This document shows positions 6,884-63,605 of a stretch of DNA of 64,000 nucleotides, piece after piece. How positions within the stretch are numbered: the stretch's first letter is position 1; each line of letters begins with the position of its first letter. Origin of the DNA: a virus. The stretch is from positions 1 to 64,000 of IMG/VR virus record IMGVR_UViG_3300021373_002437; one strand, given 5' to 3'. The notes below the pieces were generated by a model. The model saw nothing but the letters and a program-made list of their open reading frames with translations, made no database searches and had not been told where the DNA came from. The translations under genes and the position numbers were made by a program.

Positions 6884-8306
6884 TCATTTAATAGAATATA
6901 GAAAACGAGTCCTTGATGCGAAGTCCCCGTCTTTCTGTGGTGCGAAATGGTATAATGCTACTACTTGGTTAGGTAGTGGAACTACTGCATCGTGCCACCA
7001 CCCGACTGCTCATAAAATACCTCTTGTGGAGCTAGAGGCTGATCATACTGCAATACACAACACGAAGCATAAGAAAGCAGTTAGAAAGATGATGCAAGAA
7101 GGCGAAAGGCCAAAGGAGTGTGAATATTGTTGGCGCATTGAGGATATGGGTAAGGATTCTGTTTCGGATAGAGTTTTCAAATCAGAAATCTACAGCGAAG
7201 AAGACCTTCAGAAAGCTTATGAAATGGATTGGAAAGATAGTGTTGATTTAAAGACTTTTGAAATTGCTTTTGATCGAACATGTAACCTAGCATGTTCTTA
7301 TTGCAACCCCTCCTTTTCTTCTACGTGGGCTAGGGACATTAAAAAACTGGGTCCATACCAGAATCTTTTATCTGATGGAGCGGGTGCGTTTGAACAAGAT
7401 GGTTCTTGGACTGAGCCTTATGGTAGAGACGAAGAGAACCCGTATATCACAGCATTTTGGAAGTGGTGGGATGATGGGTTGTCAGATAGTCTAGAAGAAT
7501 TACGTATTACTGGTGGTGAACCCCTAATGTCTGGTAACACTTGGAAGTTATTTGATTGGTTTGAACAACAAGATTCTGACATGAGGTTTGCAATCAATAC
7601 AAATTTCATGGCAAAGGACGAAATTGTTGATCGTTTGATTGAAAAATCTCACCACATAAAACATTTTGAGCTTTATACTAGTGCTGAGTGTTATGGCACC
7701 CAGCAAGAATTTTTACGTGATGGGTTTGAATGGGATACATGGTCGAAAAATATGGACCGATTTGCAGAAGAGGGTAATTATCATAGCATAAATATCATGA
7801 TGACGATCACTGCTTTGAGTGTGTTTTCTATTACAGAATTCTTAGACGAAGTTACAGATATGAAGCAGAGAAGTCGTGCTGGCAAACATCCTGTAATAAG
7901 CGTCAATATTTTGAGGTTCCCTAGCTTCCAAAGCGTTGTGACATTACCAGAACATATAAGAGCATTTTGTAGAAACGAGTTGTTTCTTTGGATTGAAGAG
8001 AATAAAAATTTGCCCTGTTGGTTAGATTTTGAAATCGCCAGCCTGCAAAGACTGGTCGATTATCTGTATTCATACGACTCTCCATTTGAGAAGGCTAGTG
8101 AGTTGGAGGTTCGACAACAAGACTTAAAATCTTTCTTTGATCAATACTGTGATCGTAGAGGTAAGGACATAAACGTATTTCCAACAATTTTTACCGAATG
8201 GTATAATTCTTTGGAAAGTGGGTATAAGAAAGCAGCTTTGAAGTCTGGAGATAATACTAGATTTTTGGATGATAATAGATTAATAGAACTGAGGGACATA
8301 TTATGA
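6876..8306 (+). CDS. Twitch-type radical SAM protein (SCHHP subgroup, 2)
   Basis: A 476-residue paralogue of the preceding protein. The start is the TTG at 6876, overlapping the previous stop by 8 bases; the next in-frame ATG would delete the N-terminal cluster ligands. Twitch ligands are C21 (PSFCGAKW), C40 (SCHHP), C82 and C85 (ERPKECEYCW). Radical SAM ligands are C136, C140 and C143 (RTCNLACSYC), followed by RITGGEPLMS. The C-terminal CDRRGKDINVFPTIF matches the DxRR...FP signature of the group. The region NILRFPSFQSVVTLPEH corresponds to NYLRFPPHLQVTILPRK in the first copy. Divergence between copies is large, so this is an old duplication and probably specialised in substrate. Confidence 0.88.
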   Translation: MSDHLIEYRKRVLDAKSPSFCGAKWYNATTWLGSGTTASCHHPTAHKIPLVELEADHTAIHNTKHKKAVRKMMQEGERPKECEYCWRIEDMGKDSVSDRVFKSEIYSEEDLQKAYEMDWKDSVDLKTFEIAFDRTCNLACSYCNPSFSSTWARDIKKLGPYQNLLSDGAGAFEQDGSWTEPYGRDEENPYITAFWKWWDDGLSDSLEELRITGGEPLMSGNTWKLFDWFEQQDSDMRFAINTNFMAKDEIVDRLIEKSHHIKHFELYTSAECYGTQQEFLRDGFEWDTWSKNMDRFAEEGNYHSINIMMTITALSVFSITEFLDEVTDMKQRSRAGKHPVISVNILRFPSFQSVVTLPEHIRAFCRNELFLWIEENKNLPCWLDFEIASLQRLVDYLYSYDSPFEKASELEVRQQDLKSFFDQYCDRRGKDINVFPTIFTEWYNSLESGYKKAALKSGDNTRFLDDNRLIELRDIL

Positions 8307-17363: not shown

Positions 17364-17371
17364 TATAAATA
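17364..17371 (+). promoter_or_regulatory. T4-type late promoter
   Basis: An exact TATAAATA box 8 bases before the ATG at 17380. With T4 spacing (box at -13 to -6) transcription would begin about 3 bases before the start codon. It marks the boundary between the accessory operon and the next block. A match of 8 bases alone is weak, but its intergenic position supports it. Confidence 0.6.
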
Positions 17372-17379
17372 ATCGTATC

Positions 17380-17676
17380 ATGGGTGATATACTTTTATTC
17401 AAACAAAAACCCAAGGAAAAAGAGCCGCTGCTCTTGGGTTACAAAATATCTTTCTATACTGAGGTAGAGATTGAGATAGCTTTGCTGGCTCTCAATATGT
17501 ATGGATTTGATAAGATCAGATACACCGTAGAAACAATGAAACAGTTAGACCCATTGTACATACGGGACTGCCTGCTAAAACTCAAAATGAGTGATTTGAT
17601 TTCGCGCAAAGGAAAACGTGCGATTAATGTTATTATCGATAATATGGAGGAAATACGTGATGCCAACCAAATTTAA
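17380..17676 (+). CDS. Small protein of unknown function
   Basis: A 98-residue, mostly helical protein that I do not recognise. It contains EVEIEIALLALNMYGF and ends EEIRDANQI. The start ATG lies just downstream of an exact late promoter box, with no clear Shine-Dalgarno sequence. The end overlaps the next gene by 17 bases. A winged-helix-like fold is conceivable from the pattern of short helices, but no motif supports a call. Confidence 0.7.
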   Translation: MGDILLFKQKPKEKEPLLLGYKISFYTEVEIEIALLALNMYGFDKIRYTVETMKQLDPLYIRDCLLKLKMSDLISRKGKRAINVIIDNMEEIRDANQI

Positions 17677-22439: not shown

Positions 22440-22455
22440 TTTGCTATTATAAATA
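22422..22455 (+). promoter_or_regulatory. Overlapping early (sigma70-type) and late (TATAAATA) promoters
   Basis: TTGACA at 22422-22427, 17-base spacer, TATTAT at 22445-22450; an exact late box TATAAATA overlaps at 22448-22455. Both would start transcription near 22457-22462. They would drive the 33-aa peptide, the structured junction and the tmRNA in both early and late phases of infection. The -35 box lies inside the end of the phosphoesterase gene. Confidence 0.75.
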
Positions 22456-22476: not shown

Positions 22477-22578
22477 ATGAGCGATAGACAAGAATTACTG
22501 CCAGTTGTTACACGTATTATAGGCTTGACAGTTGTCATTATTGCAGTATCATATGTAATAGGTAACTGGATAACTTAA
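22477..22578 (+). CDS. 33-aa membrane peptide
   Basis: A 34-codon frame (ATG 22477, TAA 22576-22578) with a good ribosome binding site (ATGGAGGT, 6-7 bases upstream) and its own dual promoter. After a polar N-terminus (MSDRQELLP) the rest is one hydrophobic helix (VTRIIGLTVVIIAVSYVIG). It ends two bases before the long RNA stem at 22581. A toxin-like or membrane regulatory peptide is possible; nothing in the sequence identifies it. Confidence 0.6.
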   Translation: MSDRQELLPVVTRIIGLTVVIIAVSYVIGNWIT

Positions 22579-22682: not shown

Positions 22683-22746
22683 AAGAATTCGATGACGCAG
22701 ATCGAAGAACGGACGGACGCGGGTTCAACTCCCGCCGCCTCCACCA
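22683..22746 (+). ncRNA. ssrA: tmRNA acceptor piece
   Basis: Ends in a T arm of five pairs with loop TTCAACT, acceptor strand CGCCTCC and encoded ACCA, nearly identical to the 3' end known from bacterial tmRNAs (GGACGCGGGTTCAACTCCCG). Upstream, TTCGAT (22688-22693) and ATCGAA (22701-22706) form a small hairpin. The 5' boundary is uncertain because the long stem of the preceding element ends at 22681 and may be removed during processing. Confidence 0.85.
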
Positions 22747-22870
22747 AAAGCACACTACATATGGGCGACTGTTAGCTGGACTACATATTGGGTAGTAGAG
22801 TTACCGAGGAAAGAAACCTATTTCTTTAAGCTTGCTTGTTAATGGACAGTGCAAGTAGTGTGTTTTTGAT
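22747..22870 (+). other. tmRNA intervening segment removed on maturation
   Basis: The 124 bases between the encoded ACCA and the G-run of the coding piece. Its ends are complementary: 22746-22758 pairs with 22855-22867 over 13 positions with one G-U, stacking close to the acceptor helix. That presents the pre-tmRNA as one long hairpin suited for excision by RNase P and 3' processing enzymes. No coding frame is evident. Confidence 0.75.
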
Positions 22871-23066
22871 GGGGGCGATACGGATTCGACGGACGGTGAT
22901 AGAGAAGCTGAGAATAGGTCAATGTGAAAGACCTTAAGGACTGGGAGTTCCCGGTTAAAGAAGCAAAAACTATAAACGCAAACGATGACGTTTATCATCA
23001 AGATATTTTGCTAGCTGCTTAAGTCTTGACGGGGTGCGGTGGGAGCCTTGTTAACCAATTCCCACA
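22871..23066 (+). ncRNA. ssrA: tmRNA coding piece
   Basis: Begins GGGGGCGATACGGATTCGAC, the conserved tmRNA 5' end with seven bases for the acceptor helix. Hairpins AGGTC/GACCT (22916-22934) and CTGGGA/TCCCGG (22941-22954) lie where pseudoknot 1 is expected. The tag frame follows, then GTGGGA/TCCCAC (23039-23044 with 23060-23065) near the 3' end. The exact 3' end is not defined by the sequence alone. Confidence 0.82.
22978..23022 (+). other. tmRNA proteolysis-tag reading frame
   Basis: Codons from GCA at 22978 give the tag ANDDVYHQDILLAA, then TAA. The first residues AND and last AA match the usual tmRNA tag pattern recognised by ClpXP-type proteases, while the middle DVYHQDIL and the LLAA end are unlike the common ALAA ending. 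An in-frame GCA also occurs at 22963; the 22978 codon is preferred because the conserved A/T-rich motif lies immediately before it. The appended peptide in the cell would be preceded by the alanine carried by tmRNA itself. Confidence 0.82.
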
Positions 23067-24612: not shown

Positions 24613-24903
24613 GTGTTAGAAGTACTCGACTTTGATTCAATGAACCAAAAACAAAAACCATCAGACGTATTCCTAATAACAAAAGAATTTAATACTACAA
24701 CTCAGTTCTCTCAGTACATTGAAGAACAGGCAGTTAGGAGTGATTCTACTTGTATGGATATTCTGATTGATTATTGTGCGAAAAATGAAATTGAAATTGA
24801 TAGTGTTGGTAAGCTACTCAGCCCAACACTCAAGGACAAACTGGAAGCAGAAGCCCAGAATCTAAACTTACTTAAGGCGAAAACAACTAAATTACCTTTT
24901 TAA
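24613..24903 (+). CDS. gp33: gp33-like late transcription co-activator
   Basis: A 96-residue acidic protein with a GTG start preceded by AAGGAG. It resembles the T4 gp33 family: a helical middle with CMDILIDYCAKNEIEIDSVGKLL and a C-terminal end KTTKLPF. In T4, gp33 bridges the sliding clamp gp45 and host RNA polymerase carrying gp55, enabling transcription from TATAAATA promoters. Its place just before gp59 and gp32 is the expected order. The match is by pattern, and sequence conservation in this family is low. Confidence 0.75.
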   Translation: MLEVLDFDSMNQKQKPSDVFLITKEFNTTTQFSQYIEEQAVRSDSTCMDILIDYCAKNEIEIDSVGKLLSPTLKDKLEAEAQNLNLLKAKTTKLPF

Positions 24904-29255: not shown

Positions 29256-29912
29256 TTAACCGTTCGGGTCACGGTCACCAAAAATGTTATAAAAATTCTG
29301 GAAAAAACCAGCGTCCGTGTCGATTACTTCATTCTTTAAATCAGCAATACGATCAGCAACGTCTAATCTAGGTTGTTCATAATTGCTGTAATTGTTCTTC
29401 CATCTCTTCGCAGACATGGATAGTGATGTTCTAAGTTGTTGAGTGTTGCCCCAAGCAACTGGTGTGATATTTAGCAGCTTCGGCATACACTCAATAAAAT
29501 GCCATTCACCCACAACATTGTCAGCAACATCCAAAGAACGCACCTTAACATCAGCAGTAATATCGCTGTAAAAAGAAACCTCTTTGGTTTTCATATTTGA
29601 AGACAGATTAATCCAGCTTTCAAAATATGATCGCAGACTCCAGTTATAATCTACCAGAAAGGTAAATACTATTTCGGTTGAAAGGAACTCTACATTTTGA
29701 TTTCGGTATTCTGTCCACGGACCAATTTTGTATGGGACCGTAGTCGCGGATAGGCCCGGTATCTGAGCCTCTTCACACATTAGAGTGGTGAGAAAATTTG
29801 ACCCCAACTTCTTACAACCACCAATCTCTACTTCGAACCTGTCAGAACGAGGTAGGTGGGTGGTTCTCATCCGATGTAAGAACTCTTGATAGTTAGTCAT
29901 TGACTTAGGCAT
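29256..29912 (-). CDS. gp54: Tail-tube initiator-like protein (gp54/gp19 fold)
   Basis: A 218-residue protein with the tube-protein pattern SDRFEVEI, LTTLMCEEAQIPG, PYKIGPWTEYRNQNVEF, then FTFLVDYNWSLRSYFESWI, as in the T4 gp19 tube fold and its baseplate adaptors gp48 and gp54. The true tail tube gene would be expected beyond gp18, outside the window, so this copy in the hub cluster is more likely the tube initiator gp54, though shorter than T4 gp54 (320). It overlaps the upstream gene by 8 bases and precedes gp26. Confidence 0.65.
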   Translation of the reverse strand: MPKSMTNYQEFLHRMRTTHLPRSDRFEVEIGGCKKLGSNFLTTLMCEEAQIPGLSATTVPYKIGPWTEYRNQNVEFLSTEIVFTFLVDYNWSLRSYFESWINLSSNMKTKEVSFYSDITADVKVRSLDVADNVVGEWHFIECMPKLLNITPVAWGNTQQLRTSLSMSAKRWKNNYSNYEQPRLDVADRIADLKNEVIDTDAGFFQNFYNIFGDRDPNG

Positions 29913-30480
29913 TGATCATTTCCTTGCTCTTTGTGTATACTTTCCTATCAGACGCACCAACAAATTTTTGTGTTGGTAGAAAGATTGCCGCCTTCCAGTG
30001 CTGGGGGTCTACCAGTAAAAACCGACTCTTCACATGAGAGTATAGGTATTTCTTTACTGTAGGCTGTACACCGGGAAAGCGTGAAAAGTTGCTTAATAGT
30101 TCCCAACTAAGTTGGAATTTACTGTCTGAATCTATCGGCTTACTGGCAAAATCTATCAAAGACCCCAAAAGCCTAGCTCTCATCATGGGAGCCAGATAAT
30201 GTAAATTCAATCCAGTAAAGCCCCTGCTGTTGCTATCAAACGGAAGGCATAGGGGAAACCGGTCATAGTAAGGCAGTTCTTTCTTGTACTTCGGGTCATA
30301 TACATACATGTACATATTTCCCGGCTGCAACTCACTAGTCAACTCTCCCAGATCAGATCGGGATATTGGACCATATGAGTTTAAGTCTTTGGCGAATTTG
30401 TTGACCGCATGGATATACCATCTAGAAGATCGGTCTTGATCACCACGACTGCCTCTTAAATTTTCAAAAGGATTTGACAT
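29905..30480 (-). CDS. Conserved T4-like phage protein of unknown function
   Basis: About 191 residues from the ATG at 30480; a frame extension to 30552 overlaps gp4 by 64 bases and is less likely. The protein contains LQPGNMYMYVYDPKYK, LPYYDRFPLCLPF and GFTGLNLHYLAPMMRARLL, which I recall as conserved in T4-like phages without a firm role. Some homologues may be annotated as DNA-end or packaging proteins; I cannot confirm this. An exact late promoter box lies five bases before the ATG, so late transcripts could be leaderless. Confidence 0.7.
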   Translation of the reverse strand: MSNPFENLRGSRGDQDRSSRWYIHAVNKFAKDLNSYGPISRSDLGELTSELQPGNMYMYVYDPKYKKELPYYDRFPLCLPFDSNSRGFTGLNLHYLAPMMRARLLGSLIDFASKPIDSDSKFQLSWELLSNFSRFPGVQPTVKKYLYSHVKSRFLLVDPQHWKAAIFLPTQKFVGASDRKVYTKSKEMINA

Positions 30481-30485
30481 AACAG

Positions 30486-30493
30486 TATTTATA
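30486..30493 (-). promoter_or_regulatory. Late promoter placing +1 at the start codon
   Basis: TATAAATA on the minus strand (30493 to 30486), overlapping the gp4 stop codon. Five bases (CTGTT) separate it from the ATG at 30480, so with T4 geometry (box -13 to -6) the A of the ATG is the predicted first base of the RNA. Confidence 0.6.
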
Positions 30494-30947
30494 ACTCCAA
30501 ACCAAGTTCTTTCTCGGTCACTATCATAAATTTCCAGCCACGGTCCAGACAAAACTCTTCAGCGGCTTCCCACTTTGCTCTATTCACACCCCACTGTGCA
30601 ACCTCTTGTAAGAACCGTTTGGTTTTTCTCTTAGGTATCTTTGGTTCTTGGGTATATCGATATGGCTTTACTTCCACCAGACGGGTAGTGATTTTCCCAG
30701 TATTCTTATCTCGAACCTTAACAATGAAGTCTACAAAATACCTGTGCATACGACCATCCACGGGAGAGCGGTAAGGAATTACTACTTCCTCACTGCCCCA
30801 CTGCACCACATCAGAGTTAAGATCACACCAGTTCATGAATTTTAGTTCATAACTGGACCTATAAATAATATTTCTACGATCACCCAAGTATTTCTTGGGT
30901 GATCGGGGTGGGAATTTACCTGAATAAATTTCTTTACTGTAAGTCAT
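30489..30947 (-). CDS. gp4: gp4 head completion protein
   Basis: A 152-residue basic protein matching T4 gp4 (150 residues): KYLGDRRNIIYRSSYELKFMNWCD, DVVQWGSEEVVIPY, HRYFVDFIVKVRD and LVEVKPYRYTQEPK. The E...D...ExK arrangement is that of a TnsA/restriction-endonuclease-like fold. In T4, gp4 acts with gp50/gp65 and gp2 in finishing DNA-filled heads before tail joining. First gene of the minus-strand operon. Confidence 0.92.
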   Translation of the reverse strand: MTYSKEIYSGKFPPRSPKKYLGDRRNIIYRSSYELKFMNWCDLNSDVVQWGSEEVVIPYRSPVDGRMHRYFVDFIVKVRDKNTGKITTRLVEVKPYRYTQEPKIPKRKTKRFLQEVAQWGVNRAKWEAAEEFCLDRGWKFMIVTEKELGLEL

Positions 30948-30954
30948 TAAGCCT

Positions 30955-30962
30955 TATAAATA
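30955..30962 (+). promoter_or_regulatory. Late promoter for gp48 and baseplate operon
   Basis: Exact TATAAATA; predicted start near 30968. It lies 33 bases before the gp48 ATG at 30995 and drives the rightward baseplate genes. It faces, with overlap, the leftward late promoter at 30988-30995. Confidence 0.75.
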
Positions 30963-30987
30963 CATGTAAGTATAACCAACTATCAGG

Positions 30988-30995
30988 TATTTATA
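30988..30995 (-). promoter_or_regulatory. Late promoter for gp4 operon (minus strand)
   Basis: TATAAATA on the minus strand (30995 to 30988), predicted start near 30982, 35 bases before the gp4 ATG at 30947. The box overlaps the first base of the gp48 start codon on the other strand. The leftward RNA would begin inside the rightward RNA's first bases. Confidence 0.72.
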
Positions 30996-35612: not shown

Positions 35613-36209
35613 ATGAGTTGTGGTGCAGCGGAAGAACTTCTAAAGTTAGCAGACCAGTTTGATGAGGTTGAGTCCCGAATAGATGGTATGATTGGTGACG
35701 TTGAGGGGCAGGTTGGTCAAATACAATCTATTGTACAAGCCGAAATAGACAAGCTGACGGAGACTCTTACTGGGTATATACCTGAAATCGATATTCCAAT
35801 AGAAATAGATTCCCTTCAGGGAGATGTTGCTGGCATTTTGGAAAAGCTTATAGCAGGTCAGATTATTGCTGAAGACATTGCACAGGAAGTAGCCATACTG
35901 GAGGCGAAGTGGGGTGGCCTTGATCTTGGTAATATCAACTTCACAGATATCCCGAGATTGATTAGATCGGGGGCATTGGACCTTCAAAATTTGTGTCAAG
36001 TTCTGCCAAATTATCAAAATTCGGGGGCTGAAGTTACCCTAAAAGGGACTCCAATATCTTTCCCAGAGATAAACGTACCAGACATTATTAAGGGCGGCAG
36101 TATCCCAAGAATCAATAAGCCAGAGTTCAGAGTTGACATAAACAGGAGAATATCTAATGGGACAAATAAGTTCTTAAATATAAACATCCCAGACCTTTAT
36201 GTGGGGTGA
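35613..36209 (+). CDS. Baseplate-cluster protein of unknown function
   Basis: A 198-residue protein between gp5 and gp25. The N-terminal 110 residues look like a coiled coil (EVESRIDGMIGDVEGQVGQI), then SFPEINVPDIIKGGSIPRINKPEFRVDINRRI, short beta strands spaced by prolines. Possibly a spike-tip or hub-associated structural protein; no PAAR motif is visible. The stop is followed eight bases later by a late promoter box. Confidence 0.65.
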   Translation: MSCGAAEELLKLADQFDEVESRIDGMIGDVEGQVGQIQSIVQAEIDKLTETLTGYIPEIDIPIEIDSLQGDVAGILEKLIAGQIIAEDIAQEVAILEAKWGGLDLGNINFTDIPRLIRSGALDLQNLCQVLPNYQNSGAEVTLKGTPISFPEINVPDIIKGGSIPRINKPEFRVDINRRISNGTNKFLNINIPDLYVG

Positions 36210-36216
36210 GATGAGT

Positions 36217-36224
36217 TATAAATA
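36217..36224 (+). promoter_or_regulatory. Late promoter placing +1 at the gp25 start codon
   Basis: Exact TATAAATA followed by five bases (GAACT) and the gp25 ATG at 36230. With T4 geometry transcription starts on the A of the ATG. No Shine-Dalgarno would be present on such an RNA. Confidence 0.65.
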
Positions 36225-36229
36225 GAACT

Positions 36230-36637
36230 ATGACTATACAAAAGTTAAAAGTTTCTCGTTTATACAAAGACTTGGATTTGGACATGAGTGCTCCAAATCC
36301 GGTCACTGGTGATGCTCCAAAGAAAACTGATGTGAATGCGGTTAAGCAATCCATTAAGATTTTAATGCTTACTAATTTTTACGAGCGCCCCTTTGCCCCA
36401 AAGAAAGCGGGTAATATATCAGGGCTGCTCTTTGAACCTATGTCTCCTTTGGTTTCAAGTACAATGTCAAAGGTGATAGAGAAGCTGCTACAGTCATATG
36501 AACCAAGAGCAAATATTCAGTCTGTAACGGTGGAACCAGATTTCGATAATAACGCATACACAATCAATATCACTTTTTACGTGGTGGGTATCAATAAGCC
36601 CCAATCACTGACAACCAGATTAAAGAGAGTAAGGTAA
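36230..36637 (+). CDS. gp25: gp25 baseplate wedge
   Basis: A 135-residue protein like T4 gp25 (132), the sheath-like initiator of the wedge. KKTDVNAVKQSIKILMLTNFYERPFAPKKAGNISGLLFEPM is the signature region (EFRP-like LTxxGERPF in other contractile systems, here TNFYERPF). It is one base before gp6 and has a late promoter immediately upstream. Confidence 0.93.
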   Translation: MTIQKLKVSRLYKDLDLDMSAPNPVTGDAPKKTDVNAVKQSIKILMLTNFYERPFAPKKAGNISGLLFEPMSPLVSSTMSKVIEKLLQSYEPRANIQSVTVEPDFDNNAYTINITFYVVGINKPQSLTTRLKRVR

Positions 36638-63585: not shown

Positions 63586-63597
63586 ATTTCTGTTATT

Positions 63598-63605
63598 TAT
63601 AAATA
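63598..63605 (+). promoter_or_regulatory. Late promoter for tail sheath gene
   Basis: Exact TATAAATA within ATTTATAAATA; predicted start near 63611, leader of about 46 bases with TAAGGAGA before the gp18 ATG at 63657. On the minus strand the same sequence also reads TATAAATA (63601 to 63594). Confidence 0.8.

What the first reader, a model, noticed from the sequence alone, without database searches (positions are those of the whole stretch)
36217..36232. Leaderless late transcripts: TATAAATA placed so that +1 is the start codon
Before gp25 (36217-36224) and before the gene starting at 30480 (-), the late box is followed by exactly five bases and then ATG. With T4 geometry (box -13 to -6) the RNA starts on the A of the ATG. 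At 17380 the gap is eight bases. By contrast gp48, gp18 and the genes at 22477, 50851 and 57863 have normal leaders. Two identical five-base spacings suggest a deliberate design, possibly leaderless translation late in infection when initiation factors or ribosomes are altered.
Basis: partly seen in the sequence, partly recalled or inferred. Interest (0 to 1): 0.7.

Follow-up and report, generated by a model that had tools for sequence, protein, structure and literature searches.

The report
Late promoters fused to start codons
In this marine T4-like phage and its relatives, the late-promoter box of certain genes sits exactly five bases before the ATG, so their messages should begin at the start codon with no leader; the spacing has been kept across very divergent phages, which makes it a real and testable class of leaderless late genes.

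Summary
TATAAATA lies five bases before the ATG of gp25 (36230) and of the gene at 30480(-), a T4 gp2 (DNA end protector) homolog; at 17380 the gap is eight. Alone, two such genes are modest evidence (P about 0.02). Across 15 related marine T4-like genomes or contigs, however, 31 ATG-started ORFs lie at gap 5 and none to three at any other gap from 0 to 14. GTG and TTG starts, altered boxes and T4/cyanophage genomes show no peak. Boxes with a changed first base, known to be weakly conserved, add 23 more; about 25 gene families are involved. These genes mostly lack Shine-Dalgarno sites (17% have one, versus 88% of leadered late genes) and have a pyrimidine before the ATG (49 of 54). Leadered late promoters independently show a purine at box+6, T4's +1. 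Distant gp2 and gp25 homologs keep the spacing while spacer letters change; homologs without the box usually have an SD. In HTVC008M, gp2 diverges from gp4, leaving no co-directional upstream operon. Best reading: a conserved leaderless class of T4-type late genes. Not shown: mapped 5' ends, or any change in ribosomes.

The parts
36217..36224 (+). T4-type late promoter box TATAAATA of gp25
36225..36229 (+). five-base spacer GAACT; predicted -5 to -1
   Evidence: T4 box is -13 to -6 (PMC1524935)
36230..36637 (+). gp25 baseplate wedge gene; the A of its ATG is the predicted +1
   Evidence: PHROG 261 E 3e-40, Pfam PF04965
30486..30493 (-). late box TATAAATA of the gp2 homolog; overlaps the TAA stop codon of gp4
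30481..30485 (-). five-base spacer CTGTT
29905..30480 (-). gp2 homolog (DNA end protector); predicted leaderless
   Evidence: PHROG 429 E 6e-50
30489..30947 (-). gp4 homolog (head closure) upstream of gp2, with its own leadered late box at 30995-30988(-)
   Evidence: PHROG 218 E 6e-60
17364..17371 (+). late box with an 8-base gap to ATG 17380; purine kept at box+6, predicted 3-nt leader; a look-alike protein in G005 (MGQIVQFKQK...) has a gap of 5
17380..17676 (+). 98-aa protein of unknown function, near-leaderless
24613..24903 (+). gp33 homolog (late transcription coactivator); family match at 24688-24894
   Evidence: PF16805 E 7e-20. gp55 lies outside the window at 85885-86376 of the record, E 4e-58

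Best explanation
These are T4-type late promoters placed so that the gp55-RNA polymerase starts RNA on the A of the AUG, giving leaderless mRNAs for a subset of late genes, above all gp2 and gp25 (low-copy virion proteins in T4, from general knowledge). Shown: the box, the exact spacing, its conservation while the spacer sequence varies, AUG-only starts, scarcity of SD, the pyrimidine/purine initiator signature, and gp55 and gp33 genes in the genome. Inferred: the actual +1, and translation by 5'-terminal AUG recognition without SD. A likely (untested) purpose is compact, modest-level expression of minor proteins inside crowded operons, while major virion genes such as gp18 keep long SD leaders.
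For: Peak at gap 5 in 15 marine genomes: 31 ATG ORFs, other gaps 0-3; GTG/TTG none at gap 5. First-base box variants give 23 more at gap 5; single changes elsewhere in the box give 0-3. About 25 families. IMG/VR-wide scans not tied to a gene: gap 5 = 22 of 80 (ATGGCA) and 16 of 82 (ATGGCT), mostly open frames and repeatedly gp2-like and gp25-like by their N-termini; control box TTAAATAA 5 of 81; GTGGCA 8 of 82 with only 2 ORFs. SD: mean dG -1.7 versus -6.4 in leadered late genes, P 5e-14; 92% pyrimidine before ATG versus about 45-50% in the other gene classes. Leadered late promoters: box+6 is 80% purine and 1% C, which fits T4's box at -13 to -6 (PMC1524935). gp2 and gp25 across genomes: box at 5, 6 or 8 in all but one case of the marine clade, mostly with SD dG of 0 to -2.4; boxless homologs mostly carry an SD, e.g. 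T4 gp2 dG -11.2. Spacers vary (8 sequences for gp2, 9 for gp25) while length holds. HTVC008M gp2 diverges from gp4 with 26 bp between start codons.
Against: No 5' ends are mapped in any of these phages. Most of the genes (about 32 of 36 short-gap genes) follow a same-strand gene closely, so leadered read-through RNA probably also exists. In this genome gp25 has GGGGTGAG about 20 nt upstream (dG -9.0), a 4-bp AGTT/AACT stem between it and the ATG, and a 4-codon mini-ORF (36211-36225); gp2 has TTGGAG about 15 nt upstream.
Confidence: 0.85

Rival explanations
1. The box is a genuine late promoter, but the protein is made mainly from read-through polycistronic mRNA by translational coupling or reinitiation; the box sits close to the ATG only because intergenic space is short.
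For: Upstream same-strand genes end within about 0-30 nt of most boxes; in the window gp4's stop overlaps the gp2 box and gp25 follows a gene ending at 36209.
Against: Compaction predicts a spread of gaps, not a single value; gaps 0-4 and 10-14 are nearly empty. Some cases have divergent upstream genes (HTVC008M gp2, Mosig 60990) or about 60 nt of free upstream space (HTVC008M 6280). SD sites are scarce.
Confidence: 0.1
2. A split ribosome-binding site as in T4 gene 25: a distant SD brought near the AUG by a small hairpin, on read-through RNA.
For: T4 gene 25 works this way (PMC3014915); window gp25 has GGGGTGAG plus an AGTT/AACT stem.
Against: The stem is -0.1 kcal/mol; most relatives have neither SD nor stem; SD strength upstream of short-gap boxes does not differ significantly from shuffled sequence (P 0.07).
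Confidence: 0.04
3. TATAAATA acts in RNA as an A/T-rich translation enhancer at fixed distance from the AUG, not as a promoter.
For: The distance to the AUG is fixed.
Against: The same box lies 15-80 nt upstream of SD-bearing late genes; letter-by-letter dependence matches the T4 late box, including the weak first base.
Confidence: 0.01

Closest known systems
T4 late promoters (gp55/gp33/gp45-dependent TATAAATA)
   Same: Same box, same class of genes, same cofactors encoded, same inferred start six bases past the box
   Different: In T4 the smallest gap from TATAAATA to a gene's ATG is 13; here a second class has the start codon at +1
Leaderless mRNAs of bacteria with a -10 box about 12 bp before the start codon (Actinobacteria, Deinococcus-Thermus; PMC3160421) and alphaproteobacteria (S. 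meliloti, 171 mapped, all AUG; PMC3616915)
   Same: Promoter box fixed just upstream of the AUG, no SD, AUG only
   Different: Here the promoter belongs to a phage late sigma factor, not the host housekeeping sigma
Leaderless phage mRNAs such as lambda cI
   Same: Phage mRNA starting at AUG (lambda phage is named in PMC3160421 as the first leaderless case)
   Different: cI is a single host-sigma transcript of a temperate phage (general knowledge); here a multi-gene late class of T4-like phages
T4 gene 25 split ribosome-binding site (PMC3014915)
   Same: The same gene has an unusual initiation region
   Different: T-evens use a distant SD plus a hairpin; the marine clade uses a promoter at the start codon

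Membership tests
T4-type late promoter | TATAAATA box, first base variable | tested here: met
T4-type late promoter | Late factors gp55 and gp33 encoded | tested here: met
   gp55 E 4e-58, gp33 E 7e-20
T4-type late promoter | Sliding clamp gp45 encoded | tested here: inconclusive
   gp45 C-domain match E 2e-6, 24.5 bits against a cut-off of 25
T4-type late promoter | Precedes T4 late-gene orthologs | tested here: met
   gp2, gp25, gp4 by PHROGs; families shared with T4 late-box genes
T4-type late promoter | RNA starts at box+6 | tested here: inconclusive
   Purine at box+6 in 80% of leadered promoters, pyrimidine before it in gap-5 genes; no 5' mapping
Leaderless mRNA | Transcript begins at the A of AUG | not testable with these tools
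   Predicted from spacing only
Leaderless mRNA | No Shine-Dalgarno | tested here: met
   17% of 54 gap-5 genes reach dG -4 against 88% of leadered late genes; window gp2 reaches -5.9 but that site lies upstream of the predicted +1
Leaderless mRNA | Start codon is AUG only | tested here: met
   No GTG or TTG ORF at gap 5
Leaderless mRNA | Translated without SD/anti-SD pairing | not testable with these tools
   Needs reporter or ribosome profiling
T4 gene 25 split RBS | Distant SD and stable intervening hairpin, conserved | tested here: not met
   Weak in the window only, absent in most relatives

The most novel reading that the evidence does not exclude
Marine T4-like phages (HTVC008M, Mosig and Melnitz relatives) run two classes of late mRNA from one promoter type: SD-leadered for abundant virion proteins and strictly leaderless for minor ones, with initiation mode set by box-to-AUG spacing and ancestral to the clade.
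Probability: 0.65. Interest if true: 0.7.

Novelty: new variant of a known kind. Interest (0 to 1): 0.62.

Why it matters
T4 is the textbook case of late transcription, and nothing in the papers searched describes leaderless T4-type late genes; one pelagimyophage survey reported that late-promoter prediction failed in this group (PMC7029224). If confirmed, phages of some of the ocean's most abundant bacteria express virion proteins through leaderless initiation, in hosts with streamlined genomes, and a simple spacing rule predicts which genes. It also gives gene finders a start-site rule for these phages.

Tried and rejected
Chance: rejected by controls (GTG/TTG starts, permuted box, box point variants, shifted boxes). 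Wrong start codon: rejected for gp25 (in-frame stop at 36212; conserved RLYKDLD motif just downstream of the ATG; no Met between). TTTAAATA at gap 4 gave a small excess, but these fall in two conserved protein families, look like internal coding sites and were set aside. bS21 as an explanation: present only in some genomes. The CATAAATA site at 7787 is inside a gene and is not claimed as a promoter, though it is one of the 54. A Melnitz hit to TATAAATA-N5-ATG at 129066 turned out to have its gene start at gap 22.

Full report
WHAT IS THERE. The box TATAAATA at 36217-36224 is followed by GAACT and ATG 36230; on the minus strand the box at 30493-30486 is followed by CTGTT and ATG 30480. The first gene is gp25 (PHROG 261, PF04965). 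The second is a homolog of T4 gp2, the DNA end protector (PHROG 429, E 6e-50), downstream of gp4 (PHROG 218). At 17380 the gap is eight. Other late-box genes of the window have gaps of 21 to 51. The window is part of a 95,980-base virus record whose nearest isolates in the gp25 search are the Pelagibacter phages Mosig and HTVC008M and the Methylophilales phages Melnitz. It encodes gp33 and gp55 and a weakly scoring gp45, so T4-type late transcription is expected.

IS IT MORE THAN CHANCE. In this genome alone two cases have P about 0.02. I therefore fetched relatives through protein searches that do not depend on the promoter and took whole genomes or contigs. Gaps of 9 or less from TATAAATA to ATG: own 3,5,5,8; HTVC008M 5,5,5,5,5,8; Mosig 5,5,8; Melnitz 5,5; G003 5,5; G005 2,5,5,5,9; and so on, the rest mostly 15-80. 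T4, P-RSM4, S-CAM1 and Stenotrophomonas phage DLP6 have none at five. Pooled over 15 marine genomes or contigs there are 31 ATG ORFs at gap 5 and 0-3 at each other gap 0-14; GTG and TTG have none at 5. By families, 10 of 19 in gaps 0-14 lie at five (P 9e-8). Changing the first box base, which is known to be weakly conserved in T4-like late promoters (PMC1524935), leaves a peak of 23; changing other positions removes it. Together there are 54 genes in about 25 families, a few of which may be internal sites.

AN UNBIASED SCAN. ATGGCT repeated this (16 of 82). A scrambled box gave 5 of 81, and GTGGCA gave 8 of 82 with only two ORFs.

WHERE RNA SHOULD START. T4's box is -13 to -6 (PMC1524935). In 125 leadered late promoters of the marine phages, the sixth base after the box is A in 62% and G in 18%, C in 1%; T4 is similar. 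In gap-5 genes the base before the ATG is T or C in 49 of 54, the expected pyrimidine-purine initiator, whereas other gene classes have about 45-50% pyrimidine there. Gap-8 genes keep a purine at box+6 (predicted 3-nt leader); gap-6 gp25 genes mostly have C there, so +1 would again be the A of ATG one base later.

TRANSLATION SIGNALS. SD pairing in -20 to -4 averages -1.7 kcal/mol in short-gap genes against -6.4 in leadered late genes (P 5e-14). For gp2 and gp25 the pattern is close to either-or: box near the ATG and little or no SD in the marine clade; no close box and usually an SD elsewhere, as in T4 gp2 (-11.2), S-CAM1 gp2 and DLP6, and in Melnitz gp25, whose box is 16 bases away. The 5' coding end is slightly less structured in short-gap genes (P 0.01).

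CONSERVATION. Among distinct sequences the gap-5 spacer has 8 versions for gp2 and 9 for gp25, while gp2 proteins of the clade fall below 40% identity. Length is kept, letters are not. In HTVC008M gp2 and gp4 are divergent with 26 bp between start codons, so no leader can come from a co-directional upstream operon there.

CAVEATS. Window gp25 also has GGGGTGAG about 20 nt upstream, a weak AGTT/AACT stem and a mini-ORF ATG AGT TAT AAA TAG (36211-36225), so read-through RNA could be translated by a split site or reinitiation. Most short-gap genes follow a same-strand gene. T4 gene 25 itself uses a split ribosome-binding site (PMC3014915), so this gene has unusual initiation in two lineages by two different means. 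Gene starts in the survey come from a simple ORF caller, not from curated annotation, although the HTVC008M annotation agrees at gp2, gp25, csgF and 6280.

KNOWN OR NEW. Leaderless genes with a -10 box fixed near the AUG are known in bacteria (PMC3160421) and leaderless AUG mRNAs are mapped in alphaproteobacteria (PMC3616915). I found no paper in the held library on leaderless T4-type late genes, and late promoters were reported as not predictable in pelagimyophages (PMC7029224). The Melnitz paper counted 15 late promoters without remarking on spacing in the passages read (PMC9004378). Most subscription papers were out of reach. I rate it a new variant of a known kind.

Noticed in passing
window 22686-23022 (+): Permuted tmRNA (Rfam RF04321, E 5e-17; ARAGORN tag ANDDVYHQDILLAA) lying about 230 nt downstream of a late box at 22448 that precedes a 33-codon ORF at 22477.
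   Followed up: partly
window 63594-63605: Two overlapping TATAAATA boxes on opposite strands (palindromic TATTTATAAATA) before gp18.
   Followed up: no
window 30860-30995: Cluster of three late boxes between divergent gp4 and the next gene, one of them overlapping the gp4 reading frame on the other strand.
   Followed up: no
window 40648, 41206, 43327, 25579, 2190: Exact late boxes inside same-strand genes; 40648 and 41206 share the context GAAAGTGCYAG-TATAAATA-CA, perhaps repeated coding sequence.
   Followed up: no
HTVC008M (KC465899) 7549-7564: The phage curli gene csgF also has the gap-5 late box, as does its counterpart in contig G010.
   Followed up: partly
contig G010 118494-118691: gp33 homolog with an in-frame TAG stop.
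   Followed up: no
HTVC008M, Mosig, Melnitz-3, G010, G011, G012: Phage-encoded ribosomal protein bS21; not found in the 96 kb held of this phage nor in G005.
   Followed up: partly
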